From the NCBI GenBank assembly GCA_963971425.1, contig OZ020515.1, forward strand, positions 21,076,637 through 21,140,636: a DNA stretch of 64,000 nucleotides. The letters are read 5' to 3'. The position numbers were made by a program, and so were the translations under genes. Origin of the DNA: Bryoerythrophyllum caledonicum. Its lineage: Eukaryota > Streptophyta > Bryopsida > Pottiales > Pottiaceae. Under the pieces are notes generated by a model. It did no database searches, was not told where the DNA came from, and saw only the letters and a list, made by a program, of their open reading frames with translations. Of the stretch, positions 4,121 through 64,000 are shown piece after piece (position 1 is the first letter of the stretch; each line of letters opens with the position of its first letter).

Positions 4121-4133
4121 CTCTTTGTGACAG

Positions 4134-5225: not shown

Positions 5226-5243
5226 TTGTAAAATCAAAGTCAA

Positions 5244-5683: not shown

Positions 5684-5716
<33 letters not shown>

Positions 5717-23700: not shown

Positions 23701-25200
23701 CTTTCGTACATAACCCTAAATTTGACTCCTATTCTGACCTTGATCTTGTAAAAGATGTCCAAGAGATTGTCATGGCGTCGAACAGAGGTTTCCTAAGTAC
23801 ATAGTGATAGATGTAGTGGAAATAGTTAATCCACAATATTGGCTCCAAGATAATGCCGAGGTTTCCTTTTCAAAACACTTGGATGTCATGAAGTCCTATT
23901 GTGGAGAATCTCCGTGGATTAGAGAGGTTAAAGAAACTTAAACCTCCAATCCTTGACCAGTACATGTTGAAGTTGCAATACTTATTGATTGAATTTGTCA
24001 CGAGACGTGGCATCGAGGGCCTCTCCGCAACGTAGTGTTTTAGCGTAGATTAGTTTGTTATTAATCTATGGGTTAAGGGACGTACGGCAACGCATCGTAT
24101 TCATCCGTGGATGATTTCCATATACTAAAAGTTGTATGTGTGTGCGTATAGTGCTACACACGTCCTTGACTTGACGTCTTTGTCAAGTCAAGCTTTGTGA
24201 GTGAGTTTGAAAGTGTTTAGTGATTACCTTTGCTTGTAAGTGATTGTTTATCATTAGTAAAGGCTCCGCATTCTTATATACTGCTTGCACTCGTTGATTC
24301 TCCGTTTGTGGACTGCGAGATGTTTGACTACTCTTGTGATTTACTAGTCATTCACTTTACAAAGACCCTCCCACATTCCTCTCTTTAGTTCTAGAATTTG
24401 AGCTTGCGTGAATTTATGAAAATTTTGAGTGTTGACATTGATATTGTAGAGTGCTTCAAGAGATAACCATTGCGTAGTTATCATCCAATAAAAAATTCAT
24501 CCGTAGTCAATTTTCATCCATTTTTTGGGAATTCATCTACTATGAATAGTTTTCATCCACTTTGGATGAAATTTTAATTTGGATAGAATTCATTAACTTT
24601 GAGTTAATATCTTCCAAAACATTTTTATTTTTTGAATTTCAACTTTGGATTCGAGCTCTTCATAGGGATTTCTACTTGGTAGGAAAGAAAAAATTTAGTG
24701 AAAAAAATGTTTCCAAAACCACATTTTTGTGGGTTGTTTAAAAAAAGATTAGTGTCTAAACTTTGGAGGTATGTTACTAGGGCAATTTAACTCGGTTTCA
24801 ATAAAATGTGCGCCTATATTTAGGCCATTTCATCGTTAATCAAATTTTGATACTAGATTGGTGGTAAGCGCATTTGTCCTGTGCTAGCCGGAGGTGATGA
24901 CCGGTGAACCACAAAGTATGGTGGTTTTGCAGGTGCAAGTTGCATGTTCGTACCCTTATCCTTTAGACGGTACCTGTAGATAGGTCCCGGGGTGGTTTTT
25001 GTTTATGGTGAGTACCCGGAGTTGGTATTACCGCTCCCCTTCACCAGACCATCCAGAGAGAGTGCTTCCACCATAGACTTTGGGCGAGGGTCGGACACCA
25101 ACAAGGCTTTTGAGCCTATTTTGACATTAGGCACCAATCGTAGGCTTTAGATTTCGGGTGTGGGTACGTTTAATGACATGGAGGACGATCGCCGTTAGGT
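20713..25200. other. AT-rich DNA without a supported gene
   Basis: Only short frames (the longest, near 21738-22025 and 22397-22594, have no family signal). 24000-24480 reads like retroelement leader or LTR sequence ahead of the gag fragment at 25.2 kb, but no matching second LTR was found. At 24855-24960 words resembling an RNA polymerase III A box (tggtaagcgc) and B box (gttcgtaccc) lie about 85 bp apart; see findings. Confidence 0.4.
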
Positions 25201-25205
25201 CGTAC

Positions 25206-27290
25206 GCAACTAGTCCTCGGGATGGGCTAGAGACATCTCTTTGCCCGATTCGCAGCTCCGATTCTGAACCTGGATGAAGGAGAAGCGCCAACGGACGCCG
25301 TCATTTAAGGACTGGTATACATTCGAGCTCTTGCTCCAAGATTTGGATCTGGAAGACCTACAAACATACGGGGGGTGGACCACGTAGCACGAGGCAAAGT
25401 TATGCCCGTTGAAGAGTACTAGCGCTAGTGTGTAGAGTTGGTGACGGCGCTCCAAGAAAGTGCGGTTGCTTGACTCTTGACTTCCACCAAGGAGCCCAAA
25501 GTGGAAGAGAGTTTCTTTGGTGAGGACTCTAGGAGGAAGGGTATTTCCATTGTGTGCGAATAGGCTAGCCACACGTGCGGCATTGGTGGCGGTTGGCAAT
25601 CCGCGAGTCTTCGATCCACTAGCGCTGTTCATGGCACATCTAGAGATAAAATACGAGGGGTTCATGCATGATGAGATGTAGAGCATCTAGGATTTTTGCT
25701 TGGAGAAGGAGGATATTCCACTCACTATGTGTATCCGATTGGCGCGGTTGTCAACGGTGGCTGGTGATGTGTTCACGGAGTGCCAACAAGTGAAGATCTT
25801 CATCTCCAAGCTGGATGATCGAATGGTGGAGTTGATGAGTCTCCATCTTCTTTTTTAGTATCACTTTAGCGCCACTTCAACGCAGATGTTTGCCGAGGTG
25901 GAAGCGCTCAAAAGAGCGGTCGGCGTGAGCGAGGCCACAGATTTGGTCACATATTGCTGGAGACTTCAAAGCCCAAGAAGCTTGCTACAGCTACTGGTAA
26001 CTTGGCGGAGGCACAAGTTGACAAGGTTGTATAATGTTAGGCTTGTGAAGAGGCGGCTCACACCAAGGGGGAGCCTAATTGCTCAAAGAATAAAGGGGCA
26101 AGCATAGTGAGGGGCAAGCATAGTGAAGGGCAAGCGAAAGACCGAGACATCCAAGCCTGTAGAGAAGGCTGGAGGCAAGGGGAAGAAGCCTGTGACATGC
26201 TCTCACTGTGGCAAGTTTGGCCATAGTGATGAGAACTGTTTTTCTCTTTACCCGTAGAAACCCCCAAGTTCTTCAAGTGTTGGATGGGATGCAGTGAAGA
26301 CTCTTCAAGCCGGACTGATAGAGTTGAAGAAGCAGAGAGTGCGGTGGCCTCTTTGGGGCAAGTGGCTGATACATGGCCTCCGATGAGGGATCAAGGCTCA
26401 TTCTCAGCCCTAGATCGTGACTTGCATGGCGTTTTGAGGGAGGTGGTGGCAACAGTTGCCACTCGTGCTCAGACTACCACACACGCGGTGGCGCCTTCTT
26501 CCACTGTGTCGGGTAGTAGCGGTCGTCCACGCCATACGGGTTTGCTAGATCACAATGGTCAATCTCGACTACCTCTTTTGTTTAGCATTGCGAATGCGGG
26601 GACTTCTCAACATATTGCCCTCCAACATATTGCCCTCCAACAATATTGCCCTCCAACAATATTGCCGTCAAACATATTGCCCTCCAACAATGGCAAGGTG
26701 GCCATGCCATTGTTGGAGGTGTTACAAACACTGACGGCTCATCCACCAAGGAGAATCTGGTAGCAATGTGGGCCAAGTTGGCGGCGGAGGCTATTTCCGC
26801 GTTTGACGCCAATGCGACTTCCACACCTATAGAGCAGCTATTCGGAGATCAAACCTTGATCTCTGGAGTAGTTTATTTGTCTGACATTGCGGCCAAGTCA
26901 GCACGGGAGTGATGCAGTATACTTCCAAGGGTGGTACATTTGGTGAATGACGTCGGAGTCATGGTGGTGGGCCGTACGGACCGCAATTCCATCCAAGCTA
27001 CCCCCCTCTGTGCCATGATGGACTCCGGAGCTCAGCAAGTGATGATAGGCAAGTAGCTCGCTTAGGATTTGGGTCTGGATATTTCGGACCTCAAGCCTTG
27101 CCTATTTACGATTATTACATCAGTGAGGAGGCACGGAGAAGGCCATGGGATACACGCAATTCCGTTGCAGTTGATGTTTGGCGTGGGATCTAGTCCATTA
27201 TTTGCCCACATATCTCTACCAAGTAGCAATCACCGGTTGTTCGGTCGTAGCTAGATAAAGGATTTTTTTACCGGCTAGGGGGGGCACTTG
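25206..27290 (+). pseudogene. Ty3/gypsy gag-protease fragment
   Basis: A decayed plus-strand gag runs from about 25690 (CIRLARLSTVAGDVFTECQQ, then KLDDRMVELMS, EVEALKRAVGVSEATDLV), with a TAG near 25857 and a frameshift around 26000, into one CCHC zinc knuckle (CSHCGKFGHSDENC, about 26200-26243). After a spacer containing a minisatellite, a retropepsin-like protease follows at about 26985-27250: MMDSGAQQVMIG with the catalytic DSG, then DLGLDISDLKPC. Stops interrupt it right after the active site. No reverse transcriptase follows; the sequence ends in a G-rich run near 27280 that could be a purine tract. The protease is the same general type as that of the methyltransferase-bearing element at 54-63 kb. 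Confidence 0.7.
26611..26687. repeat. 15-16-bp minisatellite, 5 units
   Basis: CATATTGCCCTCCAA twice, then CAATATTGCCCTCCAA, CAATATTGCCGTCAAA and CATATTGCCCTCCAA, head to tail without spacers, inside the gag-protease spacer. Confidence 0.9.
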
Positions 27291-27721
27291 AGGGTGTACT
27301 ACATGTATTTTTTTTTGTGTATTTGATGTTGGTTAGAAATCTCAATCTATGTGGTTATTGATTTTTCTATTCACGACAAATTGGCAATGCTATCAAATTA
27401 GCAAACAACAATGGAAGCCGCTTATGACGTAAATCCACTCATGAAACTATTTACAAGTATCTACAAGTATTTTATATCATGCAAAGTAACATCTATGCTT
27501 TGGATACATTTTAGCACAAAAAATTTCACAAAAATCACTACGGCTCACCAATGCTTGCACCAATTGTTGTAGCAATGGTCTCAATAGATGCCCATCTTCC
27601 TCCAACTCAAAGTCATGGTCTACTTTTCCCTTCGAGGTGGCCTGAAACACTTGCCACATAGGTTCTTGTGCCAAAACGACCCATGTATGCTCGTTCGGCC
27701 TTTAAGTTACAAGATTCCTAC

Positions 27722-29678
27722 CTAAACCACCAGTTGCTCGTACAAATCTGGACGCAAGCGCGACTGGACGCGAACGCGCGACAACGGCACCTTCATGCTC
27801 AAGTTGATCCCGAAGCTCTCGCTCATGTCCAAATCCTCGGGACTCGGCACCGAAATGTCGAACGCGTGCACAATCTGCGCCACGGCGAGGTTGACAAGCA
27901 GCGACCCGAGCGGCATCCCGGGGCACCGACGCCGCCCGCTCCCGAACGCGAGCAGCTCGAAGTGGCCGCCTTTGAGGTCGATCTCCGGCGTCCTCAGGAA
28001 CCGCTCGGGGTCGAACTCCAGGGGATTCTCCCAGTTGGCCGGGTCGCGCCCAATGGCCCAGGTGTTGACGAACACGCGCGTGCGTGCGGGGATGTCGTAC
28101 CCCTCGATCTGGGTGGGCTGGGCGCTCTCGTGCGGGATGAGGAGCGGGGCCACCGGATGCAGCCGGAATGTCTCCTTCACCACGGCGGCCAGGTAGGGGA
28201 GGTGCGGGAGGTCCGACTCGCGGACGTGACGGGAGGTGCCGACTACGGTGTCGAGCTCGGATTGGAGGCGCTGCATCACTGAGTGGTGGCGGAGGAGCTC
28301 GCCCAGGATCCATTCGATCGTCACGGACGGCGTGTCGGTTCCCGCGATGAATAGCTCCTGCGCGAGCATGTGAAACATGTGTTTAGTATTCAGATTGCAC
28401 AGATATCAGGGTTGTCTCCTCAGCGTTCACAGAAGTTGATATTAGGGTCGGGGTTTGTGGTATACGAGAGCGAGGAGTCGAGGAACATCTCCTGCGCGAA
28501 CCTGGAAATCTGTTTAGAATTCAGACGATATTTAGGATGTCGAGCGTGTAGGACTTACGAGGGTGAGGACTTTGATGGTGTTGTCGTCGAGGTACTGCCC
28601 GTCCTCGCCGGGGGACGTGAGCATAATGTCCATGAAATCTTGGCTGGCTTCGTTCGTGTTGCGCTTCTGACGGTGCTCCCGGAGCAAGGATTCAAGGAGA
28701 GCGTCAGCCTGTTTGGCCATCTTCGCCATAGCGCGCTCCTCGCTCGAGAGAAGGCGCGTCACGGGCCGGAGGAAGGGCAGAAAGTCCGCCAGGAAAATGT
28801 AGCCCACCCATGTGAGCAACTTGTGAAACATCTTTTGGAACTCGCGTGCAGATTCCTGGTCAGCTAGGTCCTTCCCAAAGAACCTGCAGAAAGAGTAGCC
28901 ATAAATCAGCAAGTGCGGAGAAATGAATTCACGCAAGAAATCAATGAGGAGGACCAGCCATGAATCCACGACTGAAGTGAGAGAGAGATTCCCGTGCGAG
29001 AACTACATGGGAGAATTACCGTTTTTGGGCTACAGTGCGAGTGATCACGTTCATGGTCATGGCGGAAACTGCCGAGTTCAGATTCGCATAATTCCCGTTA
29101 TCAGAAGAGGCATCCTCGACGAGGCTGCACACCATGCGCTGCATCTCCTCGTCGCGCACGCCCTTGAGGAATTGCATGCGCTTCGGCGACATGAGCTCCG
29201 TGGCCACCAGTCTGCGCAAGTTGCGAAAGTACGCCCCGAGGCGCGCCGACCCGATGCCGCGCCGGATCTTCTCCCTGTCGTTGTAATACGCGAAGTACTC
29301 CATGTTGATGGTTTGCGGGTGCGAGGCGAAGTTGTGGTCCTGCGTCATGAGCACCTCCTTGGCCAGCCGCGGCGAGCTCACTACCAGCCCTGGGAACGAT
29401 CCCAGCTGGATGTGCACCAGGGGCCCGTACTTCTGGGCCAGCCTCGCCATTTGCTCGTGCGGATTCTCGCCGAGGAAGGGCAGGTACCCCAGGACTGGCA
29501 CCCCGGAGGGACCCGGAGGTAGCCTCAACTTCTTCGACTTCCTGGTCGTGGAAATCATCAAGAGCAGCACGGAGAGCGCCACCAGGAGCGTCCCCGAGGT
29601 CGGAGATTCGTGGTAGAGTCTGTGCAGGCCGAGGGAGAGGAGAATCCCTCCACTCGCCATCGCCATCAGCTGCACCAT
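27722..29678 (-). CDS. Cytochrome P450, CYP71 clan, 3 exons
   Basis: A haem-thiolate monooxygenase, presumably ER-anchored and fed electrons by NADPH-P450 reductase. Exons 29678-29020, 28883-28559 and 28357-27722 join in phase to 1620 bp, 539 aa, slightly above the usual ~500 because of a longer N-terminus. Visible landmarks: hydrophobic anchor (about residues 28-43), proline hinge PPGPSG (54-59), I-helix AGTDT (333-337), ExxR as ETFR (390-393), PERF (445-448) and haem loop FGSGRRRCPG with the ligand Cys473. These fit plant A-type (CYP71-clan) enzymes. Start chosen at MVQLMAMASG because the upstream in-frame Met at 29849 adds a 57-residue stretch atypical of the family. Substrate unknown; many relatives act in phenylpropanoid or flavonoid pathways. 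All key residues are intact. Confidence 0.9.
28455..28530 (-). repeat. Decayed duplicate of the P450 exon-3 border
   Basis: Inside the second P450 intron, the minus-strand word CGCGCAG followed by GAGATGTTCCTCG repeats the true border (CGCGCAG then GAGCTATTCATCG) 130-140 bp away. The adjacent intron sequence (tgtttagtattcagat against tgtttagaattcagac) is duplicated too. The duplicated exon start soon diverges, so it looks like a relic tandem duplication with a potential decoy acceptor. Confidence 0.6.
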
Positions 29679-29689
29679 CTTCGCAGGCT

Positions 29690-29848
29690 CAAATCCTTGA
29701 AGAAATGGGTACTCTACCAGTTGCGAGCCACCATCTTCGCACCAATCCGAGGTGAAGCTCTTCTGTATAAGCTCACAGTCGAATCCTTGAAGAAGTGGAT
29801 CTCTAGCAGTGGTTCCAGTATGAGGTGAAGCTCTTCTATGTAAGCCCA
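29690..29848. repeat. Imperfect tandem duplication upstream of the P450
   Basis: 'aatccttgaagaa' and 'gaggtgaagctcttct' occur in the same order at 29690-29770 and again at 29783-29840. The second unit is shorter. It lies directly upstream of the chosen start, in the probable 5' UTR or promoter, and keeps a Met open further upstream by chance. Confidence 0.65.
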
Positions 29849-30095
29849 CTTATTTCACAGATAGCGGTTTCTAGAGAAACAAGGGTTTATCTATTTCACA
29901 TGTGCGTTGGAAGGGTTGCTGGCAAGCAATAAGAGGCCGCATGTTGCTTGTGCCTCTGAACTCCCCTCTACAACAGCTCCGTTTGTCTTACCAAAATTTA
30001 CCAAGTCCATCCCTCGTATCTACCACAATATCAGATAGTTTCCTTTATAGGAACAACACTCGAAATGTGGTGTTATAAAGGAAACCGACTATACA

Positions 30096-49638: not shown

Positions 49639-52472
49639 CAGGCTAACACACCCTCCATTTCACCAAAAATTGTGATACTATTAAGGTGTGACAATTTTGG
49701 TAATATCACATTTGAGGTAGAATTTGATATTATTAAAAAAGATCAATTTTTATTTATTAAAGAAACATAAAATAACAATAAAACAACAATGTCTCACATG
49801 CAAGATTTTGCAACCGGATCAATCACCATCACTCACAAAAACTCAAATGACATGACCAAGAACACTTTAGCAAAGTACATTCCATGACAAGAGAATGACT
49901 AGATTATGTACCAACACATGACTAAAGATGATGATCTTGATAAAACATCACATGACCAACAACGACTACTAACAATAACTACTAGCAATGACATATACAA
50001 GGAATAACTCAATGGCTTACAAAAATAAAACAATTAAAAAAATATTGAGTATCAAATAAGAGACTTGGATGATTTGAAATAGAGAAAAATGCAAATGCTT
50101 AAATAACAAATAAAAACATCATAATGATTCATTAAAGTCAAATGAAGACCTTTCACTAGACACTAAAAAACCTCTAATGTCACATTGCTTTTTTGATGCT
50201 GATGTTAAATAAGCAACTTCAATTCAAATGAGTTTGTCGTAGATTCTTTCCAGAGCTAACAACTCTCCGGTATTAAAAAGTTTAGAACCTTGACTAGCCA
50301 TAAAATTTAAAACATCTTTTGCACGCATTTATGCATCATCCAATTTTACAACTCTAGGCTCAACATCATTAATCCATCAACAATATCTTCTTCCACTACA
50401 TCATTTGAGACTTCCTGTTCATTTTGTACCAATTGAATAAGTTGTTGAGTATAGTACTCTATCTCAAATTCATCTTCTCCTTCCATATTGACATATTCTT
50501 TTGGACAAAGTTTCTCCAAGGATTTACCATGAACGTCGGAGCCTAGGTTTAACACTCCAATTAGAGTTCCCAACTCTAAAACTGCCTCCTCCATCCTCAT
50601 CTTCACGCATTCATCAAGGTTCTGAATATCTGCATTACAGTTTGTAGATAGTATAGCGGATTTTCTCCAACAATTCTTGATAGTGTGATTATCTAACTCA
50701 TGCCATGCTCCTACACACCATAGCATAGCTTCATAAAGATTAACATTTAATTTCCCTAAATCCTCAACCAAGCCTCTATCAAATTGCTGCAATGTCCAAA
50801 TAACAAGTTTTTGTTTGTAGCACATCTTAAAAGCATCAATCATCCTCTGATCTAAAGTTGAACAATAGAAGTGACATTGGGAGGAAGAAACAAATAGTGT
50901 TATGAGAAAGCACAAATGCATTAAAACCATCAATCACTTTTTTTACCTTCCCATGAATATCATGGTTTCCTGCATTATCTATAATAATGCAGATCTTCCT
51001 CTCCTTCAACGCCATGCTCCAATTTTCACCTTTCACCAAAGAAGTGATTGTACTACTAGTGTAATAGTGCACAACACTGTTTGGATCAAATTGACGAGGA
51101 AAACACCTTGGATGCATCAACTTGTGAATAAAGACAATCTTCAACCGTTCCTTGGCTGAGATGTTAATACAAAGCTCCAAAGTGACGCGGTCCTTCTTCT
51201 TCTTACTTCCTTTAACTTTCCCAATATTCAATGTCTTGCAAGGAGGAGCTTTGTAGTACAAACATGTGTCATCAAAATTGAAGACATCCTCGGGGTCATA
51301 ATTTTTCAAAATTGACAGCACCTTCGCCATAGTCAGTACTACTCCTACTGCATCCGCATCTCCAGCTTTGCCATGGAAATAATGACATGCAATTCCGTGC
51401 CGCACTTTAAAATTTTGCAACCACTCGTGCGAAATCTTAAAGTTGGAGTCAAAAATGTCAAATGGTTCTCTCAACTCATCAGCCTTATGCACGAGCACAT
51501 CATCTGTAACCACTCCCCTCCGCGCTCTTACATGTCCAAACCATAACACCAAGGCCTTCTCAAGTTGCGGCCATTTTCCATCTCGAGCACGCCGCACAGT
51601 GTCTTCACACACACTTGTCCCTACATTGAGCCACTTCTCCTTTGCACCTAAAATCTTAGAAATTGTGGTGCAATCCACAAGCTTCAATCCATGTTGACTC
51701 ACCATGTATTGCGCAAGTTCTCCATGCTTCAAAAATGGTTGAGCTCTGTAAACTTCACAAATTTTCTTTTTGTCAGAGGCAGATAAATCCACACGTTGAC
51801 GCTTACTTGTGGAATTACTTGCCATTGAAAACACCTCCTTCTACTAAACCATTTCTCAAATATAACATTAAAAAATCCAACAAATTCTCACAAAAACTGA
51901 GGTGAATTTCACAAAAAACGAGTCACTAGAGAACATTTACAACAACCTCACGATCTGAACCAAACACAAAACTGAAGAGTAATAGTGAGAGAAGAAACTA
52001 ACGCCTTAATCTAGCATTGCTAAGGCATTTCTAAGGTGAAGGAGGTGATGCAATGTGGAGAGGCAGGGTTTCTGTGAGGTGTAGTAGAGAAACTTGATGT
52101 TTGCTCATGTGGCAATGAAAGGAAAATTCTCATGGCAATGGGGGACGGAGAATGGCAATGGGGAATGGTGATAGGGGGGATGGTGGTGGGGGGCCGGGGA
52201 ATCGCAACAAGCACGTTGCAATAGGCAGCGCCTCCGTCTGACAACGCATGTACATGTTTTTATTAATTAATTAATCAATTAATTTTTGTAACTAGAAATC
52301 CAATTTCGATAATAACACAGTCACAAATGGATTTTGAAAAAAAAAGTGACATTATCAAGGGTGATAGTGATTCTAATAAGGGAGTTTTATATTAAAAAAA
52401 TTGATTTTGAGGTTTTGGGTGACAATATCAAGGTGTTCTATTAACAAGTGTGATATTGTCAAGGTTAGCCTG
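49639..52472 (-). mobile_element. pogo/Tigger-like DNA transposon
   Basis: Left end CAGGCTAACACACC after TA (49637-49638) and right end GGTTAGCCTG before TA (52473-52474): short inverted termini with the TA target duplication of the Tc1/mariner/pogo superfamily. Subterminal words (gatattgtca, tgtgacaatttt) recur in inverted or direct form near both ends. The transposase is on the minus strand inside. Total 2834 bp. Confidence 0.8.
50346..51834 (-). pseudogene. pogo/Tigger-like transposase with frameshifts
   Basis: The first frame (51834-50836, 332 codons) has a CENP-B/psq-like helix-turn-helix (SKRQRVDLSASDKKKICEV), then a second HTH_Tnp_Tc5-like domain (KALVLWFGHVRARRGVVTDD, FKVRHGI), then the DDE domain with FNFDDT, the Lys-rich KGSKKKKDRVTLELCINIS and IIIDNAGNHD. 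About 20 codons before its end the reading leaves the conserved frame. The second frame (to 50346) continues with LDQRMIDAFKMCYKQKL and the C-terminal region. At least two small indels near 50840-50900 break the catalytic domain before the third acidic residue. Only 51825 or 51834 can be the start. Not functional without repair. Confidence 0.8.
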
Positions 52473-53365: not shown

Positions 53366-54050
53366 CAGATTGTGCCTCGGTAGTATTGTAGTTCCTAGCA
53401 TCTTACAGAGTACCCTATTAGCGTGTTCTTGAAGTAGACGCTTGAAGCCACAAACCCAAAAAGTGATGAGACTAGTAAAATGCATTCAATAGAATTGGAG
53501 GGATCTCTTTATTTAATGTAGGTAGATGTCACAGAGGGTGGGCGAGGGATAGGCCTTTCTCTTCTGTTTTTTTATAATTTCGAGGGTCCAGAAGTTTTTT
53601 TGGATTTTTTTTGCCAAATTTGGGGCATGTGGCCATAATGTATCTTTAGAGGACCCACCTTGGTCTAAATAGGGCCCCCCTCCAACACAAAAATAGGAGC
53701 CAGGTTTTGTCCACAACCTCCTTCCCGTACCATCCGTCTGTATGGTTCAAAAGAGATCCGAATTGGAGTGGCATATCCTATACTACGCTATCAAAAGAAA
53801 ATGATCAAAACATATGTATGGCATGGTCTATGCTGCCAACGAAGGGCCTAGACTTTAGGCTTCGATGGTGGAAGCGTTGTCTTATGTTTTGTGAGTGAGA
53901 TGAATTTACCTTAGCTGGACTTGTTTGGAATGAGGTTTGATGTGTAGTCCACCTCATTTGAATGATGTCACCATTACACTAATAATGGTAATTTGTGTTT
54001 GCAACATTAATTATGAACCTTGGAGCGAATTGAGATCAGTTTACTACAAG
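53366..54050. other. No supported gene
   Basis: Short frames without family resemblance. The N-terminal half of gag and the 5' LTR of the following retrotransposon should lie here but were not recognised. Confidence 0.4.
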
Positions 54051-54059
54051 AGAAAGAAG

Positions 54060-54780
54060 CCATGGGATTTCTCAAACATGATGAGGTCTTGGAGAAGGTT
54101 AAGGTGGTGAAGGTGGTTGTTCCTTCCTATACCGCTGACACGGGTGCCTTGTGCTTCAAATGTAGGAAGCTAGGACATTAGAAAAATGATTGTAAGAAAG
54201 GTAAGACTTCCACACCCCAGGCTCGAGGTTTCTGCTTTGGTTGTGATGCCAAGGGGCACGCGGAGGCCAATTGTTGGAAGCTTCATCCGGAGTTGATGCC
54301 TTCCGGGAGCAAGGGAGCAAAAGTTTGAGGCAATGATAAGGAGTCCAAAGCCAATTGAGGAGAAAAGAGAAATTGAAAGGCCAAGTTCGCGGAGTTAGAG
54401 GCAAAGATGGAAGCAATGAATGCCAACACTACGGTGAAAGATGGAAGTCTCCAGGGAACTCCTAGTTTTCACGTCGGGGGCGGTTTTTGTTCCGTGGATG
54501 ATGAATTTGAGGAATTTAGCTTGAGTGGCATCGCACTTACCATCAAGGATGGCACACGGGAGGCCTATGCCTTCATACGGAGCCAAACACCACTTTCCAA
54601 GGCGGTTCCACGTGGAGTTAGTTCAACTCTAGATCCTCAACATGGAAAGGATAACCGACAAGCACAGTTGCCCGAGTCCTTCACTTTGGAGGAGATGGTG
54701 ACCACGTTGTCCATGGTGCCTCTACCACGATTGGTGGCGACATCCAAACGACCCTCACCGTAAGTTGGAAGACAAACGGG
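54060..54780 (+). pseudogene. Gypsy gag C-terminus with two CCHC knuckles
   Basis: Reads VLEKVKVVKVVVPSYTADTG, then two nucleocapsid knuckles: CFKCRKLGH.KNDC (54152-54193, with a TAG inside) and CFGCDAKGHAEANC (54233-54274). An acidic spacer region follows (KFAELEAKMEAMNANTT, VDDEFEEFSLSGIALTIKDG). Two tandem knuckles are common in Ty3/gypsy gag and bind RNA. The upstream capsid part is missing or unrecognisable. Confidence 0.75.
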
Positions 54781-55069
54781 AGTTCATGAGGCAACTATGG
54801 AAGCAACAACCTCGGTATGTGAAACTTCTTTGTTTTTTGCTGAGGTATTGTCACATGATGGCTTTAGTGTGGCAGAGGTTTTCAAGCTGGCGGCCTCAAT
54901 GTGTAAGTTGGGCAACTCCATGGCTGTCAAGGTCTTGAAGACAGTGGTGATTGAGGTGGAGGCATAGGAGAGCCAGAGTGACAACAATGAGGGGCTGCTT
55001 TCAACAGCCATGTGTATAAAGACAATAGTCGCCAGACCCCCGATTGAGAGGTCATCCATTATACCTGGT

Positions 55070-55565
55070 GTGGTGGTGGTTGACAACTCCCAAGGTATTT
55101 TTCAACTTGTTGGGTTTAAGGGGAGGATTTTTGTACCTTGACGTGTGCTTTTAGATTCAAGAGCTCAACCTTTGATGTTGGGAGCATCAACTATTGAAGG
55201 GTTGGATTTGACTAGGGATACTTTGGAGAAGTGTCCATGGACAATTAGCACATCCATGGGGGTACATAGCAAACTACAGGCATCACAAAAGTTGAGTTGG
55301 AGTTGCAAGTCAATCATGGAGATGTGGCAGATGCAAGCTCCATGAAGGTGAACTCAATTGTCACGGAGGCCAAGTCATATGATGTCTTGGTGGGCTCGGT
55401 GGTGCTATATCCAATGGAATTCACTTTAGATTTCTGGAAGGAGCCACCAAGCTGTAGACCAAGATGGCAAGCAGGAGATGGATGGAAGGCTCACCTACCA
55501 GCTCGATTTGTTCGAGTTCTTACTGAAACCTTGCTGACATGTTTGCCTTTTCTGGATGTATCAAT
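55070..55565 (+). pseudogene. Gypsy aspartic protease
   Basis: The active-site stretch reads LLDSRAQPLMLGASTIEGL at about 55145, where DSGAQ is expected: Gly is replaced by Arg (a G-to-A type change). After CPWTISTSMG a frameshift near 55260-55300 moves the reading to MELQVNHGDVADASSM, and then YDVLVGSVVLYPMEFTLDF, the flap and C-terminal end. It resembles the DSGAQ protease at 26.99-27.25 kb. Confidence 0.75.
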
Positions 55566-55849
55566 GTGAAACCTTCATGGTTTTAGGCAGGTTTTGAGGA
55601 TTCCCCTATTGCTAACCATACTTTAGAGGAAGTGAATGTCCATATGGGCAACACGAGTGATGGAGAGGTAGAGGGATATCAACTTGGGATGAAGGCGGCG
55701 TGGAGCAACACCACCCAATTGAGGGAGGCGGCTGAGTTAGTAGTGGGAGAACCATGGCAACATTCTATGCTACCATAGATGCAACAGGAGTTCGGAGTTG
55801 AGCAAGACCGAGGGCCTCCTATGGACACTTCTACCATCCATTGAAAAGC

Positions 55850-57660
55850 ACCAACCGATGGCATCATGTTGTTGGAGCTCTTTGGAAGAATTGGCACAAG
55901 ATTGGCAACTATTTTATAAGTAGGGATCAAAGTCAAGCGTTACATTTACGTGGACGTGGATGAAGCTGCAAAGCATGTAGCCAAACCTGACTCATGGAAA
56001 CTGAGGACACAATTCCCAAAATTGTTGGCCATTAATGCCATTAAAACCTCCTTCTCTACACTTGTGGGTGATAATTCTTTGCTACCAGACGATGACATTC
56101 ACCATGTGGATCATTGTTAATCGGAGATTTGGACTTATTGTAAGGTCCCGGTAGTAATTTTTTGATGTTACTAAGTAGTTATGGCTAAAAAATAAAAGTG
56201 TGGATGAATCTGGACAGTGGATGAAACTGTCTAGACTTAAGATAAAATTGTCCGGATATAGATGTCATCCGTCCAGATATCTCTCATCCACTATGGAAGA
56301 TTAGGGTTTGGAGGGGGTAGAGAGCCGCCCTCTTGGACTTTGGAGCTCTGTCTTTTTTCTAGTCTCTTCGTGTTTAGCAACCTAGAGTGTGGAGGTGTGG
56401 TTAGAGAGCTAGGAAGTGAAGGTATTGTGTGGATCTAAAGTTGTAGTGAGTATGGAAGTGGATATGGAAGTTTGAGGAAGTAAAGCAAGACTTGCTACTC
56501 TTTATTGGGTATTTGTATTATGTTGTGAACGTCTGAGTAGACCTTGTTGTCCAAAGAACATTTGTGGAGAAACTTGGTTATGGATATTGTAGATCCGGCT
56601 TGAATACATCATATTTGAGATAGATCTAGCCCAATCCACTAAACCCTACACATTTCAAGTAGGTTAGAGTGAGAAACACGTCTGGATTTGTTGCGGGTGT
56701 ACTCTGATTCGTTGTAGTCCAGTGTGAAAACACTAGATCTGTGAATAAAACCTAAGAAAAACAACACAAACAAAGTTCCAACAAACTCTAGATTCAGATC
56801 TAGATTTGAATCTAGATCAAATCCGGAGTTTTAGACTCAGTAAAAGTCCGGTTCCGAACTTTTGTCATACAGCTTAGAGCTTCAGTTTGAATGAGCGTAG
56901 AGAAGACTTTTTAAGTGAACTTGAGGTGGAAATCTCCCTTTAACAGTCATGTTGACCTTGTCATTGTAGGATGGCCTTGCCAAGGCATGCCTATGGCAGA
57001 AAATCAAAACGAATTGAAGGACTCCCGTTCTTCTAGATTCTTTGATATGATTTGCATGCTACAGTTGCTTCAAACTTCTTAGAAACAACCCCGAGATTAT
57101 ATTGTGGAGAACGTGCCGGTGGTGAGCAATTCGAGGTCTAGGACATTGGAAAGTATGCACGGCATCCATCAGACTCCGGATTTGCTAGTTTTAATTGATG
57201 CGGGTGCAATGGGGTCAAGAGCACATCGACCAGGCTTGTGGACAAACCTCGCACCGACCGAGTTGCTACGGTCCATAGTGGGTCGCATTAAACGGCCGGA
57301 TGTGTACGTGAATGATATTCTAGATCCTCACAGGACACCATGACGCGTCTATCACAATGACCAAACACCCATGGTGGTGGTTAACTGCAAGAGAGAACTA
57401 CACAGGACTTTGCCCCCAAGGATTAGTTTTGCACGGTCTTATGCTTTTAAGGATAATGGCCGTGGGCTTGTACGGGATTCATTGTGATAGGAGATGGTGG
57501 AGCCTAATGCAGATTCTGAGCGGGAGAGAGCCATGGGCTTTTCCACTGGCACCACTAATGTGCATGGGATTTCTTAGCTAGAGCGACGGATTTTACTTGG
57601 TTAGGCAATGGATTTAAATTGCTTAGTACGGATTGTATCTTTAGTGGTTGCCAAACAAAA
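55850..57660 (+). pseudogene. DNMT3-like cytosine-5 DNA methyltransferase domain in a retrotransposon
   Basis: Transfers methyl from S-adenosylmethionine to cytosine C5 (family knowledge). Motifs in order: motif I LLELFGRIGTRLATIL (from 55869); an acidic YVDVDEAA segment (motif II position); then, after the insertion at 56139-56945, VDLVIVGWPCQGM with catalytic Cys at 56978 (motif IV); ENV at 57107-57115 (motif VI); LIDAGAMGSRAHRPGLW (57191-57241, motif VIII region); SERERAMGF (57515-57541, motif IX); ERRILLG (57581-57601) followed by AMDLNCLV (motif X). The IDA..(G)S.AHR..LW and RR.LLG..... patterns resemble DNMT3-type enzymes rather than bacterial or DNMT1/CMT types. It lies in frame with the retroviral polyprotein between protease and RT. 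Nine in-frame stops kill it. Confidence 0.85.
56139..56945. mobile_element. Probable solo LTR inside the methyltransferase region
   Basis: The 807-bp piece starts TG (TGTAAGGTCCCGG) and ends CA (CCCTTTAACA). Host reading stops at EIWTY on the left and resumes with VDLVIVGWPCQG on the right. Flanking pentamers CTTAT and GTCAT agree at three of five positions, compatible with an old target duplication. It has no coding capacity. Confidence 0.6.
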
Positions 57661-58188
57661 GCATTTTGCTTCTAGCTTGACTACTTGCATGGGCTATTAT
57701 GAGTTGCGGACGGCAGGAGAACCACTCGTCTCTGTCAAGGTGACAAACAAAGTGGTTGGGGGCAAGAGGGCCTTGGCACCTCATTTATGGAATATGTGGG
57801 GTGCGGCAAATCTTTTTGCAATGCCCAAGGCAAAGGATCTTCACCAAGGGCTGAGATTGGCTCACAAAAGGATGGATTTGGAGGAGGTCGCGGGGAAGAT
57901 GTTTTTGGAAGAGCAGACGGCCTCTCAAATGGAGGAAATTGGTAGTCTTAGCATGTTGGAGGGACTTGGAAGCATGGTGGATGTGCGGAAAGGTGGGCCT
58001 TCCTCAATTGGCATCCAATAGCAACCAAAGGTGGGCCTTCCTCAATTGGCATCCAATAGCAACCAAAGGTAGAGAAGCCTGCTCCAAAGGAACCAAAGGA
58101 GGCAGTGACCAAGGAAACTCAGAAATCGATAGTTGGCTCGGCAGATGGAGCAGTAGAGGTAGAGGAATAAGATTTTCCCAAGGAGTAG
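57661..58188 (+). pseudogene. Spacer between methyltransferase and reverse transcriptase
   Basis: Continues the methyltransferase frame as YYELRTAGEPLVSVKVTNKV, then LAPHLWNMWGAANLFAMPKA, then a Glu/Met-rich helix-like part to 58020. No domain recognised. The 38-bp duplication lies here. It could be a target-recognition extension of the methyltransferase or a linker. Confidence 0.5.
57992..58067. repeat. 38-bp tandem duplication in the pol spacer
   Basis: Two identical head-to-tail 38-bp units (57992-58029, 58030-58067). Not a multiple of three, so it shifts the frame between the methyltransferase and reverse transcriptase. Confidence 0.95.
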
Positions 58189-58990
58189 ATGGATTGTTTT
58201 GCGTTTATTTTGCACGATTTGGGATTGATGAAGGGACAAGAGGTATGTATTAAGCTGATAGATGAAGCACCAATTTATCGGAAGCCATTCAAGTATAGCG
58301 ACATCGAACGAAGGTTGATTTGCGCTCGTAAAGAGGAATTAGTGGCAGCAGGGCTAGTGGAGTTGGTGCCACCAAATTGTGAGTATGCATCGGCGACGGT
58401 TATGCCATCCAAGAAGGATATCTATGGTAATTGGACTGAAAAGAGGATGTGTGGTGATTATAGGAGGATTAATAAATTTACTAAATCAGACCGTTATGCC
58501 ATGCCAACTCCGGAGGAAAATTTTGAGGCCATTGGTCATGCTGAGGTATTGAGTACATTGGATTTATACTCTAGATACCACCTAATAGGACTAGAAGATG
58601 AGGACAAGGAGAAGACCACGTTCTTGGACATTGATATGGATGGAAAAGACTGGTTGTTCTAGTGGAAGTTCTTGCCATTTGGATTGAACAACGCATCAAC
58701 AAAATTCCAGAGGGTTATGAACCGGGTATTCTCAGGCTTGGACTTTGTGAGATGCTACATTGATGATATCATTTTCTTTAGCAAGAATCGAAAGCACTAT
58801 AGATTACACTTGATGGAGGTGTTTGCTAGATTAAGACTGCACAGTTTAAAGTTGCATCGTCATAAGTGTAAATTCTTCTTCGATTGTATTGAGTATTTAG
58901 GCCACATTATATATCCAAGTGGATAGAGTGTGGTAGCTAGCAAGGTGGACGTGGTGATGTCTATTCCCTGACCACGAGATGCTAGTAGGC
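58189..58990 (+). pseudogene. Gypsy reverse transcriptase
   Basis: Motifs in order: MCGDYRRINKFTKSDRYAMP, DLYSRYHLIGLEDEDKEKTT, KFLPFGLNNASTKFQRVMNR, the catalytic YIDDI (58756-58770) and KCKFFFDCIEYLGHII. TAG at 58660 and at 58924 replace conserved residues. Together with the following RNase H this is typical Ty3/gypsy pol. Confidence 0.9.
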
Positions 58991-58999
58991 TACGGACCT

Positions 59000-59560
59000 T
59001 CTTGTGCTTGTGTAACTATTATAGAAAGTTTGTAAAGACTTTCAGTGCTCTTGCAAAACCATTGACCATGTTGACAAGGAATGATCAACCTTGGATGTAG
59101 GAAAATGAGCAAGAGATGGCTTTTCAACAATTAAAGGACCATTTGGCATCAACATTGATACTTCAAAGGCCAATAGTAGGGAGGACTTACTAGCTACACA
59201 GAGATAGGAGCGCGTTGGAGATTGGCGTAGTATTGACGCAAATGGATGATGATGGGAAGGAGTTTGTGATTGCGTATAGTAGTTGGTCCAACAACAATGT
59301 AGAGGCTTAGTATAGCTCATATGAAGGAGAGTGATTGGGTGCCATTTGGATAATTGTCCATTTCAAATATTATCTTTATGGTAACGGAGTATTGTTTGTG
59401 ACTGATCATCAACCGTTGAAGTGGTTGATGGAACTTGACAAGCTAATAGCGAAACCGACGTGGTGGGCCTTGATGTTGATAGAGTACGACTTCAAAGTAG
59501 TTCACACAGCAAAGTTGATGAATATGGATGCTGACGGCCTTAGCCGTAATCCTGTTTGAA
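59000..59560 (+). pseudogene. Gypsy RNase H
   Basis: Reads FLCLCNYYRKFVKTFSALAK, AFQQLKDHLAST, LEIGVVLTQMDDDGKEFVIA, then VLFVTDHQPLKWLM and LMNMDADGLSRNP. The DHQPL and DALSR-type motifs are conserved in gypsy RNase H. Several in-frame stops (near 59097, 59190, 59308, 59330) disrupt it. Confidence 0.85.
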
Positions 59561-59822
59561 ACCAGGAGGATGTCACATGCGCTAGGTGGCACAGTAAAGG
59601 TGAAGCTGATTCGATGCTAGGTTGGCATTGTTCTGCGTTTCTTAATGACCATGTAGGAGATCCCACTGGAGAAGCTATTGTGGCCACGGTAGATGAGGAT
59701 GGAGGTAAGGAGTTTTAGGGCGCCAAAATCATCTTCGAAAATATGAATGTATTGCATTTTCTAAAAGATGGAGAAGTGGTGCCATCATGGTCCACTAAGG
59801 AGAGAGATCGAGTCTTGCAGAT

Positions 59823-60705
59823 TTATTCATGCACAAGAAGGTAAAAGTAAGAAGTAAATGTGGAAGTAGAAGATGGAAAAAAATAGTAGAAGTCAAGGAT
59901 AAATGGATCAATGTCAAAAATACAAATCAAAGAATACAATAAACATTGAATAGAGGTAAAAAATAAGGTAAAAAGGAAGATAAATATGCCTCGCTCAAGG
60001 CAACAGATTTTTGTGTTACTAAACAAGCAATAACTCAATTGTTTAGGATCCAATTGAGGCGTGCCTAGAACACAAGAGAAGTTGACTTCACGATCTGTAA
60101 CCCCCCAAAAGCGCAACTTCCAATTCGTTGTGAGTTGTCTGTACTAGCCGATCAAAGTTGGTGCTTTTAATCAACGTGGCAGCAAACCTCCCTTCACTAA
60201 AACGGCTACAACTTCTTCGTTATTGATATGGTGTAGATGTGTTTGGTGCTTTAAAAAGTTGATTTCAAGATCTCACTTCTCTCAAAAATTTAACTGCCAA
60301 TGCTATGTATCTAGCAAGATATATGCAACAAAAATTGCATGTGTAGAAAATAAATAAGATTGGAACCAAATTGACATGGCTTTGCCTGAGAGATGCGGAG
60401 AGTGGCTGCCTAAGACCTCTTAACCACCACAAGGTGGCCTAAGGGTGGCGGCTACATCTCCACAGTTAAAACCAACAATCTCTAACCAAGATCAATGGTC
60501 CAAATTAACTCAAAGTCCTAAATCTGATTATAAGGCTAGACATACACAAAACGACTAAACTAAAGAAATTTTGACAAAACTAACATCACCAATATGTTCA
60601 AAACACATTTAAACCTCGTGATTGATAATTCATAAATTCAAATCCGAGTTTTAAATCACCAAAAACCAATTGGTTCCTTAATATAATTGTTTATTTTGCT
60701 TGCAA

Positions 60706-60736
<31 letters not shown>

Positions 60737-61075
60737 TCTTCTATTTTTCTCTTTTCACTTTAACATAAGTGCCATACAATTTGAAGTGTCAATCTAACTT
60801 TTTGACTAGCTAAATCAAACACTAAACTACTAACTTGAACTACATAAAACAAAATACTAATAATAATTCACTAATGGGTTCTATGTCTCTTTTGCTTCTC
60901 GCAAGTCTAATTTTCTATTAATAACTCTAATTTTATCCTCCGCACTAATTAAAGGCTAGATGGAGCCCTTCTAACTCAAAAACTCTAGGTAACACTACGT
61001 GGTGCTATTAATCACAAACCTAACCACTAATTGCAACTAATGAGGTTGTCAATTACTAACTAATTACTAACCAAA
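59823..61075. other. Unidentified insertion between RNase H and integrase
   Basis: About 1.25 kb of AT-rich DNA with no pol coding, containing an AT/T run at 60709-60736. The pol reading stops near RDRVLQIYS on the left and resumes with LARVWPDGNKKVV on the right. I could not find inverted or direct ends, so the class is open. Confidence 0.5.
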
Positions 61076-61078
61076 ATT

Positions 61079-62130
61079 GTGGCGCTTTTAAGCACTCACA
61101 AGAGGACTCACCTAGCTAGAGTGTGGCCGGACGGTAACAAGAAGGTGGTGTCGGGTTCAACAGAGAGGGTGAAGCTGATCAAGCACGCTCATGAGGATCT
61201 AGGACACTTTGGAGTGCGAGGGACCTATAGTTTGCTACAAATTCACTATTGTTGGCAAGAGATGCAGTCACAAATCCAAGCTTTGGTTGCTCGGTCTATG
61301 GTGTGTGATTCGGTGCGAGCGTCTTTTAACGCTCCGATGCCACAATTGCAACTATTCCTAATTATGGGCTTGGGACATAGGTGGAGCTTGGATTTTGTAG
61401 GACCATTGCTAGTGACACCTTGAACCATCAAATATGTGTTGGTGATCATTGAACTTTTCTCAAAATGGATAGAGTTGATTGCATTGCCTGACATGTTCAG
61501 TGAAGGGGTCGCTTACTCTATTCTTGTTCATGTTCTAAGTTGCTTTGGAGTTCCAGCGGACGTACTCACTAACCAAGGGAGAGAATTCTTGGGTAACTTT
61601 CAGATGTTGTGTGAGCAAGGGATGATTGATCAATGCACTACTTCGAGGGATCACCCCTAAGTAGATGGATTGGCCGAGCCCATGGTGCAAACCGTCAAGT
61701 GGGGGCTTCGGAAGTACAACTTGGAGAAGGGACACCACCAAGATTGAGATTTGTACTTGCCGTGGAAAGCAATGGACTATCGGTATAGCAAACATGCATC
61801 CTTGGCGTCATTTTTACCTTACTATCTATGTTTGGAAGGCACCCGATTTTACTGAAGGCCATTCAAGCAAATGTTGACACTATATTGGCTAACATGGATA
61901 ATCGAGACACAAGGGCTCAAGTGTGTGAGCAACGTGCAGATTTGTTCAAAAGGGTGATGCCTATGGCATCTGAAAACATCTCAATTGCTCACCATCGGGA
62001 TACGTTGCCCTATGCTACAATGTGGAGAAGTGACTATACACCGCAAGTGCGTCGTTTCACGCCTAGAGACTCTATGTATTTACAGCAACCATCATCCACC
62101 ACCTTGGATGTGACAACATGATGGATAATT
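61079..62130 (+). pseudogene. Gypsy integrase
   Basis: HHCC-type zinc region HAHEDLGHFGVRGTYSLLQ (the first Cys of the CxxC pair is lost), then the rve core: HRWSLDFVGPLL with the first Asp, VLTNQGREFLGNF where the second catalytic Asp is Asn (a G-to-A type change), and VDGLAEPMVQTVKWGLRKYN with the Glu. After a frameshift near 61830 the C-terminal part continues as GRHPILLKAIQANVDTILAN, then MASENISIAHHRDT and RRFTPRDSMYLQ. Several stops. Inactive. Confidence 0.85.
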
Positions 62131-62139
62131 TTTAGATTT

Positions 62140-62440
62140 TTGAAGTGAAGGACTTAGGGGTGTTAATATTCGAGAGTAGTGATGGTAAGATGTGGAAGGA
62201 TTACACACGCAATTGCGCGCCTTGCCACTTGCCACTAATTGATGGAACTGTGCACCCTAGCCTCTCTCACATCTCCGTTGGATTGTGTTGTAGATTATGT
62301 GGTGGCGCCAAACGGGAGTCACAATGGTTATTTGTGATTTCTGTTCTACGGGGTGGCATTTTGAATGCTTAAGTCCACCTCTTTCGGAGGTACGAGTGGG
62401 TCAATGGTCTTGTCCAGAGTATTTAGCACATTGAGGGTCT
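62140..62440 (+). pseudogene. PHD-like finger at the integrase C-terminus
   Basis: After VKDLGVLIFESSDGKMWKDY and NCAPCHLPLIDGTVHPSL the reading enters a Cys/His cluster: CRLC (62287-62298 region), then after a one-base frame change VICDFCSTGWHFECLSPPLS and VGQWSCPEY. The C-x2-C, C-x2-C, H-x2-C, WxCP layout is that of a PHD finger (C4HC3); the last Cys is Tyr. PHD fingers bind histone H3 tails. In this place chromoviruses carry a chromodomain, so a targeting role is plausible (inference). Confidence 0.7.
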
Positions 62441-62684
62441 AAATATACAAAGCCTAACATTCAAAATGTTTTAGAAGCGATTAACGATGGGGCTCTACTT
62501 ACATCCAATCTACCCTTTTCTATGGAGTCTGTTAGCGTCTTTTCATGTGGATCACATTGACTCAATGGCCTTGAGAGGTTTTCATTCACAATTATCATTC
62601 AGTTGTATACAATTGTGTGGTTCACCGGTATGAAAGGTGCTTCAGCACGGGCAAAAGGGGCAAGTATAGGGGTACTTGTAGACC

Positions 62685-63486
62685 GTTTACTACTTCTTGG
62701 TGTATGAGGTTATGAGTCATTTATTTCTTTTCTCTAAGTCTAAATTGCTCATAGAGTATAAGTGTGTGTTGTTTCATTGTTTAACGGAGGTAATGGTGGT
62801 GGATTTGTCACCGCTACTCCGGATTTGTCTTTGATTGTGCGCTTTCACTTGATTAGCACGATGTTATCTTGGCACGATGCGGTTGTGGACGACAACTGTC
62901 ACATTCGGCGCGCCGGAGGTTTTGTGGAGGTTGATTTATGTGTTGTAAATCAACTAGGAGGTTAAGTGGCCAAAGGAAGACCTAGATTCTAGCTCAAGTT
63001 GGTAATTAGAGTTAGTATTAGGATATTGGTAGTGTCTTTTGACACCTCATTTGGGACTTGGAGTCCAAATGACCTCCACGTGTAGTTGAAGGAGACTCGT
63101 CTTTCTCAAGTTGAGTCTACCACATGATGAAGTGAGGGAGTGTGTATGTACGTGTACTTCATTAGCTTCATTGTTATTATGCGATCATTATTTAAGAATG
63201 GCATTGACTTGACTTTGTTGTATGTTTCCAAGTGGGTTTCACTTGTTTTCTTAGTAAATGGGCACTTAGAAACCGCTTATTACTTTTTGGCGTATGAGGT
63301 TATGAGTCATTTATTTATTTTTCCTCAATCTAGATTGTTGATAGTACGTAAGTGTGTTGTTTTGTTGTTTAACGAAGGTAACGGTGGTGGTTTTGTCACC
63401 GTTACTCCGGACTTGTCTCTAACTGTGCATTCTCACCTGATTACCTTGATGTTAACATGGCACAATGCGGTTGTTCACGACAATAG
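62685..63486 (+). repeat. Direct repeat of ~217 bp, two copies
   Basis: 62685-62900 and 63270-63486 share long blocks (for example 'tatgaggttatgagtcattt', 'ggtggtggatttgtcaccg' against 'ggtggtggttttgtcaccg', 'ctccgga.ttgtct') about 585 bp apart in the same orientation. They may be pieces of the polyprotein 3' end from two related elements, or part of an LTR. Frames in both read GGFVT.TPDLSL, so the repeat was probably coding once. Confidence 0.7.
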
Positions 63487-64000
63487 ATTTTTTTTGGTAA
63501 CACTAAAAATACCTTAGTTTCTACACATTCTTATTTTAAAAACAAGAAGAATTGCCAAGAACTTTCTTTCATTACTACCCGCTGTTATAAAATACAATAG
63601 TATACTCTATGGTATTAATATAATTCATCTCAATACTACCCTGCACATTTGTTCCAAATTCAAACTTTTGATTAAAGCATTATGAGTTTTTCTCTATTAG
63701 TCCAAAAAAATAAAGATTTTCTTCCTTACAAATAACCCGTATTTTTATTTTTTCTAAAATTTTCAACTATTGATCTTCAGAATTTGATTTTCAAGAGCCT
63801 ATCCAAATTGATTTGCACCTAACAAGTACAAATTGTCCTTTAGGGGTTAATCAAAGGAGTAGAGATTCATATGAAATGCCTTGGTCCTCTTGGAATTAAA
63901 TTGTTGTCAACCTTGGTTTGATGTTATTTCTCGCACAATTATCCACCCAAATTATTTTTATCTCGTGATGGTGATAGATATTGGGCTCACAAACTCGTGG
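63487..64000. other. AT-rich end with TTAA-element right ends
   Basis: At 63833-63850 ATTGTCCTTTAGGGGTTAA and at 63878-63898 CCTTGGTCCTCTTGGAATTAA are right-end sequences of TTAA family 1, 49 bp apart, without recognised left ends. No gene. Confidence 0.55.

What the first reader, a model, noticed from the sequence alone, without database searches (positions are those of the whole stretch)
55850..57660. DNMT3-like DNA methyltransferase built into a Ty3/gypsy retrotransposon
A cytosine-5 methyltransferase with motifs I, IV (GWPCQG), VI (ENV), VIII-like (IDA..GS.AHR..LW), IX and X lies between the protease and reverse transcriptase of a plant Ty3/gypsy polyprotein. Capture of cytosine methyltransferases by retrotransposons has been reported for dinoflagellates and a charophyte alga, so a land-plant example of DNMT3-like type would be important for how transposons interact with host silencing. 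Motif order and position inside pol argue against a host gene that was merely hit by an element.
Basis: partly seen in the sequence, partly recalled or inferred. Interest (0 to 1): 0.93.

Follow-up and report, generated by a model that had tools for sequence, protein, structure and literature searches.

The report
DNA methyltransferase inside bryophyte-type gypsy retrotransposon
A worn-out copy of a jumping gene, related to ones in liverworts, peat moss and a green alga, carries a DNMT3-like DNA-methylating enzyme between its protease and reverse transcriptase and a histone-reader-type finger on its integrase, so these elements appear to carry their own chromatin-marking tools.

The parts
54017..55261 (+). 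3' part of gag with zinc knuckles (about 54149-54290, by eye) and start of protease; N-terminal ~290 aa of gag not found
   Evidence: tblastn of P0093/P0111/P0109 (57-58% identity); P0111 matches only from its residue 290, P0109 from 295
55040..55512 (+). retroviral-type aspartic protease, decayed (DSRAQP where relatives have DSGAQP or DTGAQP), with a frame change at about 55261-55297; limits by eye
   Evidence: translation, tblastn with L007 ORF1, alignment A1
55818..56111 (+). methyltransferase piece 1 (motif I), premature stops inside
   Evidence: HMM model positions 7-103; L007 ORF1 732-830, 39%
56112..56947 (.). 836-bp insert inside the methyltransferase; 9-bp TSD CATGTGGAT/CATGTTGAC (56103-56111 / 56948-56956, 7 of 9 equal) and similar inverted ends, Mutator-like
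56948..57661 (+). methyltransferase piece 2 (motif IV GWPCQG, VI ENV, VIII-like GSRAHR, ERERAMGF region), several premature stops
   Evidence: PF00145 E 6.2e-6; P0001 66%; HMM 103-309; L007 ORF1 830-1068, 42.5%
57662..58018 (+). C-terminal tail of the Gag-PR-MTase ORF, ending ...GIQ before the stop
   Evidence: 6 of the 9 family proteins whose match ends between 57900 and 58060 end exactly at 58018
58019..58064 (+). UAG-CAA-CCA stop (58019) and its copy (58057) in a 38-nt tandem duplication (57989-58064); the second copy is in frame with RT
58189..59814 (+). reverse transcriptase and RNase H
   Evidence: RVT_1 1.7e-18 on 58663-58923; L007 ORF2 50-585, 55%
59815..61100 (.). second, unidentified insert between RNase H and integrase (approximate limits)
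   Evidence: gap in the match to L007 ORF2
61112..62136 (+). integrase: H2C2 zinc domain and core
   Evidence: PF17921 1.1e-11; L007 ORF2 599-939, 59% and 46%
62278..62421 (+). PHD finger at the integrase C-terminus, with one frame change
   Evidence: alignment with L007, P0092, P0108; tblastn L007 ORF2 996-1033 at 62306-62419
62655..64000 (+). possible start of the 3' LTR (purine-rich tract then TGTAGACC), extent not settled; no 5' LTR found
   Evidence: by eye only; no LTR pair
23996..27378 (+). second element, same subfamily as L007 (72-82% DNA identity in the long matches): LTR piece, gag, part of protease, 21-nt stop region, PPT/LTR start; MTase and RT to PHD missing
   Evidence: blastn against L007; the 21-nt match alone has E 0.041 but is collinear

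Best explanation
The window holds a dead copy of a Ty3/gypsy LTR retrotransposon from a lineage with relatives in bryophytes and the alga Closterium. An intact relative (L007) encodes Gag-protease-DNMT3-type cytosine methyltransferase, then a UAG stop in leaky context, then RT-RNase H-integrase-PHD finger in the same frame. Shown: domain order, catalytic residues in most held copies, the stop and its context in three elements (two of one subfamily), long co-inheritance of MTase with protease. Inferred: most translation stops at the UAG, so the MTase is made and packaged at Gag level; readthrough gives the minor pol product; inside the particle or on the incoming DNA the MTase adds 5-methylcytosine to the element's own cDNA, so new copies arrive already marked as silent; the PHD finger, akin to ones that read H3 tails unmethylated at K4, tethers the integrase to silent chromatin. 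The element would thereby lower its harm to the host and choose safe sites. The target and methylation context are unknown.
Against: No activity, expression, particle or methylome data. The gypsy DNMT3 tested in PMC5890265 (KnitGypsy-Dnmt3) gave no methylation in yeast, called inconclusive there. 11 of 99 spanning proteins lack the motif IV match and 13 of 112 the motif VI match. The stop is not universal: P0138 and P0124 lack it. UAG-CARYYA sites are not rare enough for the motif alone to convince: 4 on the + strand among 937 TAG of the window, about 1.8 expected at equal base use; the argument rests on position. RNA after the stop is strongly folded in L007 (z -4.5) but not in the window (z +1.3). 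The H3K4me0 reading is by kinship only, and the PDB list also holds PHDs of other specificities (KMT2D, DPF3, KAT6A). P0092 and P0108, which carry MTase parts and the PHD, are spliced gene models lacking motif IV. Low CG and CHG content of this copy (0.53 and 0.55 of expected) fits host methylation equally well, and 2-kb tiles of the window go as low as 0.30 for CG.
Confidence: 0.55

Rival explanations
1. The MTase acts on RNA: it methylates the packaged genomic RNA or primer tRNA (m5C), helping packaging or reverse transcription, not DNA marking.
For: In L007 it is made with Gag, the RNA-binding protein, and upstream of RT; its motif IV PCQ is the form seen in the HhaI alignment, while DNMT3A has PCN. 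PMC5890265 raises RNA methylation for the LINE type.
Against: Profile and fold place it with DNA-methylating DNMT3, far above the tRNA C38 (DNMT2-type) enzymes (4e-19 against 5e-6).
Confidence: 0.15
2. Counter-defence: the MTase interferes with host silencing or cDNA-sensing, by methylating host targets or protecting cDNA from deaminases or nucleases, rather than silencing the element.
For: Long conservation suggests a benefit to the element; the discussion of PMC5890265 lists protection of cDNA as an option.
Against: No host target known; the integrase PHD resembles readers of silent chromatin, which points towards integration into silent sites.
Confidence: 0.2
3. Structural use: the MTase fold works as a DNA clamp or Gag scaffold and catalysis is dispensable.
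For: Motif IV Pro is Glu (WECQ) in 16 of 208 held proteins, among them Closterium and Calypogeia, and some copies lack the Cys.
Against: The Cys and the EN of motif VI are kept in most spanning proteins across sequences about 40% identical.
Confidence: 0.08
4. A host DNMT3 gene that an element merely hit or captured once in this genome.
For: This copy is broken and has inserts.
Against: Same position in many other sequences; protease and MTase trees share their main groups.
Confidence: 0.01

Closest known systems
KnitGypsy-Dnmt3 of Klebsormidium nitens (de Mendoza et al. 2018, PMC5890265)
   Same: DNMT3-related domain inside the Pol ORF of a gypsy element of a streptophyte, under purifying selection there
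   Different: That paper reports DIRS-like terminal repeats; its main text has no hit for 'PHD' or 'moss' and 'bryophyte' once, for clustering of a DNMT3 gene. No Klebsormidium protein appeared in our listed rows, so common descent is untested. Here relatives include liverworts and Sphagnum, with a UAG between MTase and RT and a C-terminal PHD
SymbioDIRS-Dnmt3 and SymbioLINE-Dnmt (Symbiodinium, PMC5890265)
   Same: Retrotransposon-encoded cytosine methyltransferases; the DIRS type is DNMT3
   Different: Tyrosine recombinase or LINE machinery; here an rve-type integrase and gypsy-type RT
Animal DNMT3A/3B
   Same: Catalytic domain fold and motif order; ADD reads H3K4me0 (PMC11021467, abstract seen in listing), a role the element's PHD may parallel
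   Different: No PWWP or ADD hit in the MTase ORF of L007; reader and catalytic domain are in separate parts of a polyprotein; about 23-26% identity over aligned residues
Chromoviruses (chromodomain gypsy elements)
   Same: Histone-reader-type module at the integrase C-terminus
   Different: PHD finger instead of chromodomain; the main text of PMC6317226 holds neither 'PHD' nor 'methyltransferase' (passages seen)

Membership tests
C5 cytosine methyltransferase (PF00145) | Profile match above curated cut-off with motif IV Cys and motif VI EN | tested here: met
   Window piece 26.3 bits against 22, L007 45.9 bits; motif counts
DNMT3 family | Closest to DNMT3 catalytic domain, ahead of DRM, bacterial and DNMT2-type enzymes | tested here: met
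   DNMT3A 3.7e-19; 4onj 'DNA methyltransferase' (tobacco DRM, recalled) 1.6e-11 and chains labelled DRM2 2.8e-8; HaeIII 1.2e-8; HhaI 5e-8; tRNA C38 MTase 4.7e-6; no chain labelled DNMT1 or CMT among the 57 at E 0.1; Foldseek and VIA
DNMT3 family | Linear motif order (DRM is rearranged; recalled, and PMC6453930 figure-legend passage) | tested here: met
   Alignments
DNMT3 family | Placement in a tree with plant and animal DNMT3, DRM, CMT, DNMT1 | tested here: inconclusive
   Only a partial DNMT3A and two bacterial-type outgroups were available
Plant host DNMT3 | DUF3444 partner domain (PMC6453930, passage) | tested here: not met
   Not among Pfam hits at E 0.1 in L007 ORF1
DRM | Rearranged motif order | tested here: not met
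   Order is linear
Ty3/gypsy LTR retrotransposon | Gag-PR-RT-RNase H-integrase order with rve integrase | tested here: met
   L007 ORFs; window pieces
Ty3/gypsy LTR retrotransposon | Flanking LTRs, PBS | tested here: inconclusive
   L007 is a contig with 127-nt overlapping ends, consistent with a one-LTR circle or repeat collapse; no PBS identified by eye; no LTR pair in the window
Chromovirus | C-terminal chromodomain | tested here: not met
   Pfam finds PHD, no chromodomain, in L007 ORF2 at E 0.1
KnitGypsy-Dnmt3 | Sequence kinship and DIRS-like terminal repeats | tested here: inconclusive
DIRS elements | Tyrosine recombinase in place of rve integrase | tested here: not met
   rve 1.2e-13 and no phage-integrase hit in L007 ORF2

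The most novel reading that the evidence does not exclude
The MTase has also moved within pol (RNase H then MTase in P0162, MTase then integrase in P0148).
Probability: 0.3. Interest if true: 0.85.

Novelty: new variant of a known kind. Interest (0 to 1): 0.66.

Why it matters
[quoted passage not shown] DNMT3-type MTases as a stable part of gypsy elements in two liverworts and in Sphagnum change that for bryophytes and give tractable hosts (Marchantia) to ask why an element would carry the host's silencing enzyme. It bears on how much of early land-plant methylation at transposons is self-inflicted, and adds a PHD finger and a leaky stop to the known toolkit of plant gypsy elements. PMC12344493 (2025, passages seen) mentions retrotransposon DNMT3 in streptophytes and dinoflagellates, citing the 2018 paper. 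In the listings and passages I saw from ten paper searches no paper described the bryophyte lineage, the PHD or the leaky stop; this is weak evidence, as many journals and all preprints are outside the library.

Tried and rejected
First thought that the 836-bp insert was a solo LTR (TGTAAGG...CCTTTAACA); rejected because the 9-bp duplication CATGTGGAT/CATGTTGAC and similar inverted ends lie outside those termini.

Viral contigs gave no relative with the window piece (7 stretches, none confirmed) and, with alignment A1, 6 loci with matches of 38 to 112 query residues, not followed up. Genome contigs gave 5 loci, of which only L007 is a close relative; the other four are Streptomyces. No LTR pair was found for the main element or for element 2. 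RNA folding after the stop was inconsistent. CG and CHG depletion in this copy cannot separate self- from host-methylation and is within the range of other tiles of the window. CMT and DNMT1 chains do not appear among the rows, which is not proof of exclusion. Tree of MTases: one sequence, P0120, entered twice by mistake (once as family hit, once as outgroup); DNMT3A and P0162 are long branches. In one search two of 21 chosen proteins (P0078, P0023) dropped out because the motif I pattern was not found; the two trees disagree on P0168 (long branch) and on the order inside the P0035/P0058/P0039/Marchantia group; label permutation does not allow for shared ancestry beyond the distances themselves. 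The list of short C-terminal tails was chosen after looking. The window's P450 was compared with PDB only. Of the 208 proteins held, 121 came; one search listed the best 120 of 287; searches scored only the 7996 candidates sharing most words.

Full report
WHAT IS THERE. Six-frame translation shows Gag zinc knuckles and protease sequence from about 54017, then an MTase in two pieces, then RT, RNase H, integrase and a PHD finger on the + strand. The MTase piece from 56948 passes the Pfam cut-off for PF00145 (E 6.2e-6); piece 1 alone gives no Pfam hit. An HMM built from relatives matches piece 1 at model positions 7-103 and piece 2 at 103-309, so the pieces abut in the protein. Between them lies 836 bp with a 9-bp imperfect target duplication and similar inverted ends, a Mutator-like insertion. 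A second gap of about 1.3 kb separates RNase H from integrase. Premature stops and frame changes are scattered through the element, and no gag N-terminus or 5' LTR was found: this copy is dead.

THE FAMILY. A search with the MTase region, candidates of 550-1750 aa, gave 3 hits among 106 candidates: P0001 (JGI, 66%) and two Closterium sp. NIES-54 proteins. P0001 as query then gave 119 clusters at E 1e-4 or less out of 7996 scored candidates. Organism names among them: Calypogeia fissa, Marchantia polymorpha, Sphagnum troendelagicum, S. jensenii, S. magellanicum, Closterium, and one Obscuribacterales MAG; the rest are unnamed clusters, mostly metagenomic. An alignment search gave 287 out of 7996 scored, 120 listed. 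Of 208 proteins held, 170 match the MTase model, 26 span positions 15-330 and 53 have at least 150 aa before it; 29 of the 170 also carry a D[ST]GA[QH]P protease motif. No single protein apart from L007's two ORFs shows the whole order. Gag or protease before the MTase is seen in Closterium P0003, Calypogeia P0089, Marchantia P0047, Sphagnum P0078 and metagenome proteins. MTase before RT is seen in Closterium P0002 and in P0138, and running towards RT in P0124 and P0084. In P0162 the MTase follows RNase H and in P0148 it precedes the integrase, a second position.

INTACT RELATIVE. L007 (CADCWO010000201.1, filed as a cyanobacterial MAG, by its content a mis-binned eukaryotic repeat) is 9285 bp with 127-nt overlapping ends, consistent with a one-LTR circle or a collapsed repeat. 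It has two open frames: Gag-PR-MTase (8609 to the end, continuing at 3-3488) and RT-RNase H-integrase-PHD (3492-6632) in the same frame, with one stop between.

THE STOP. It is UAG-CAA-TCA in L007 and UAG-CAA-CCA in the window (58019, duplicated at 58057). A 21-nt match (95%, E 0.041 alone, but collinear between protease and PPT) carries L007's stop region into element 2 of the window, at 27224, again UAG-CAA-TCA; element 2 and L007 are one subfamily. All fit UAG-CAR-YYA, the tobacco mosaic virus readthrough context (recalled). A random UAG is followed by CARYYA about once in 512 at equal base use; the window has 937 TAG on the + strand and 4 such sites, these three and one elsewhere at 11036, so the argument rests on where they lie. 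Six of nine family proteins whose match ends between 57900 and 58060 end exactly at the residue before this stop. Of 91 held proteins that reach model position 320, 24 end in one of a few short tails that I listed by eye, such as GIQ and ATK; the other 67 end elsewhere, many shortly after the domain or mid-contig. P0084 has Tyr at the stop position and continues in frame towards RT. P0138 and P0124 lack the stop.

CO-INHERITANCE. For 19 of 21 chosen elements with both parts, protease-region and MTase distances correlate (Spearman 0.733 over 170 pairs; 0 of 2000 label permutations as high). The groups L007/P0048/P0051 with P0123/P0125, P0001/P0038 with P0062, P0089/P0097/P0205, and P0035/P0058/P0039 with the two Marchantia rows appear in both trees; the trees differ on P0168 (a long branch) and on the order inside the last group. 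MTase is less diverged than the protease region (median 0.55 against 0.68), which includes spacer. In the wider tree (quick method) the window piece groups with P0001 and P0014 (SH-aLRT 99).

PHD. L007 ORF2 residues 990-1034 match PF00628 at 4.3e-10; P0092 (Marchantia) and P0108 (Sphagnum), both spliced gene models, also have it, as does the window at 62278-62421 with one frame change; Closterium P0002 shows none. The nearest PDB sequences include PHF12, CHD4, UHRF1, KDM5A/B, PHF21A and ATXR5, several of which read the H3 tail unmethylated at K4 (recalled); PHDs of other specificities are in the list too. The same list holds the Ty3 Gag-Pol integrase.

READING. Shown are anatomy, affinity, conservation and the stop. 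Inferred are readthrough, Gag-level delivery, self-methylation and targeting. Retrotransposon DNMT3s from Symbiodinium DIRS methylate CG in yeast; the Klebsormidium gypsy one did not in that assay, an inconclusive result (PMC5890265, parts 1-4 of 7 read). This copy is depleted in CG and CHG (0.53 and 0.55; 0.53 and 0.53 without inserts) against 1.02 and 0.92 in the P450 region and 0.68 and 0.73 in the whole window; 2-kb tiles range from 0.30 to 1.0 for CG. This agrees with past methylation but not with who did it, and is not extreme here.

KNOWN OR NEW. A DNMT3 in a gypsy element is known from Klebsormidium (PMC5890265). What is added is relatives in liverworts, Sphagnum and Closterium, the stop between MTase and RT, and the PHD finger. 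PMC6338049 (passages) states absence from land plants such as tracheophytes; no tracheophyte name appeared among the named rows either. The main text of PMC6317226 has no hit for methyltransferase or PHD. PMC12344493 (passages), PMC6453930 and PMC12885004 (passages) do not describe it in what I saw. Whether the Klebsormidium elements belong to the same lineage is open.

Noticed in passing
window 23996-27378: Internal-deletion derivative of an L007-type element: LTR piece, gag, part of protease, the leaky-stop region and the 3' PPT/LTR start, with MTase and RT to PHD missing; perhaps a non-autonomous form.
   Followed up: partly
window 27705-29849 (-): Cytochrome P450 gene, apparently with introns; N-terminal part nearest in PDB to plant ferruginol and sugiol synthases.
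   Followed up: partly
window 50346-51840 (-): DNA transposon gene with Tc5-type HTH (9.5e-12) and a DDE_1 match below cut-off, pogo/Tigger-like, with a frame change.
   Followed up: no
16 of 208 held proteins, among them P0002, P0003, P0107 (Closterium), P0089 (Calypogeia), P0097, P0124, P0127, P0169: Motif IV reads WECQ instead of WPCQ, an unusual Pro-to-Glu change next to the catalytic Cys.
   Followed up: partly
P0162, P0148: MTase lies after RNase H or before integrase rather than between protease and RT, a second position in pol.
   Followed up: partly
P0057 and L007: Retrotransposon contigs filed under bacterial MAGs (Obscuribacterales, Synechococcales), P0057 named there 'DNA cytosine methyltransferase': by content, mis-binned eukaryotic DNA in public bacterial genomes.
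   Followed up: no
L007 3489-3618: RNA after the leaky stop folds far better than shuffles (z -4.5); not so in the decayed window copy.
   Followed up: partly
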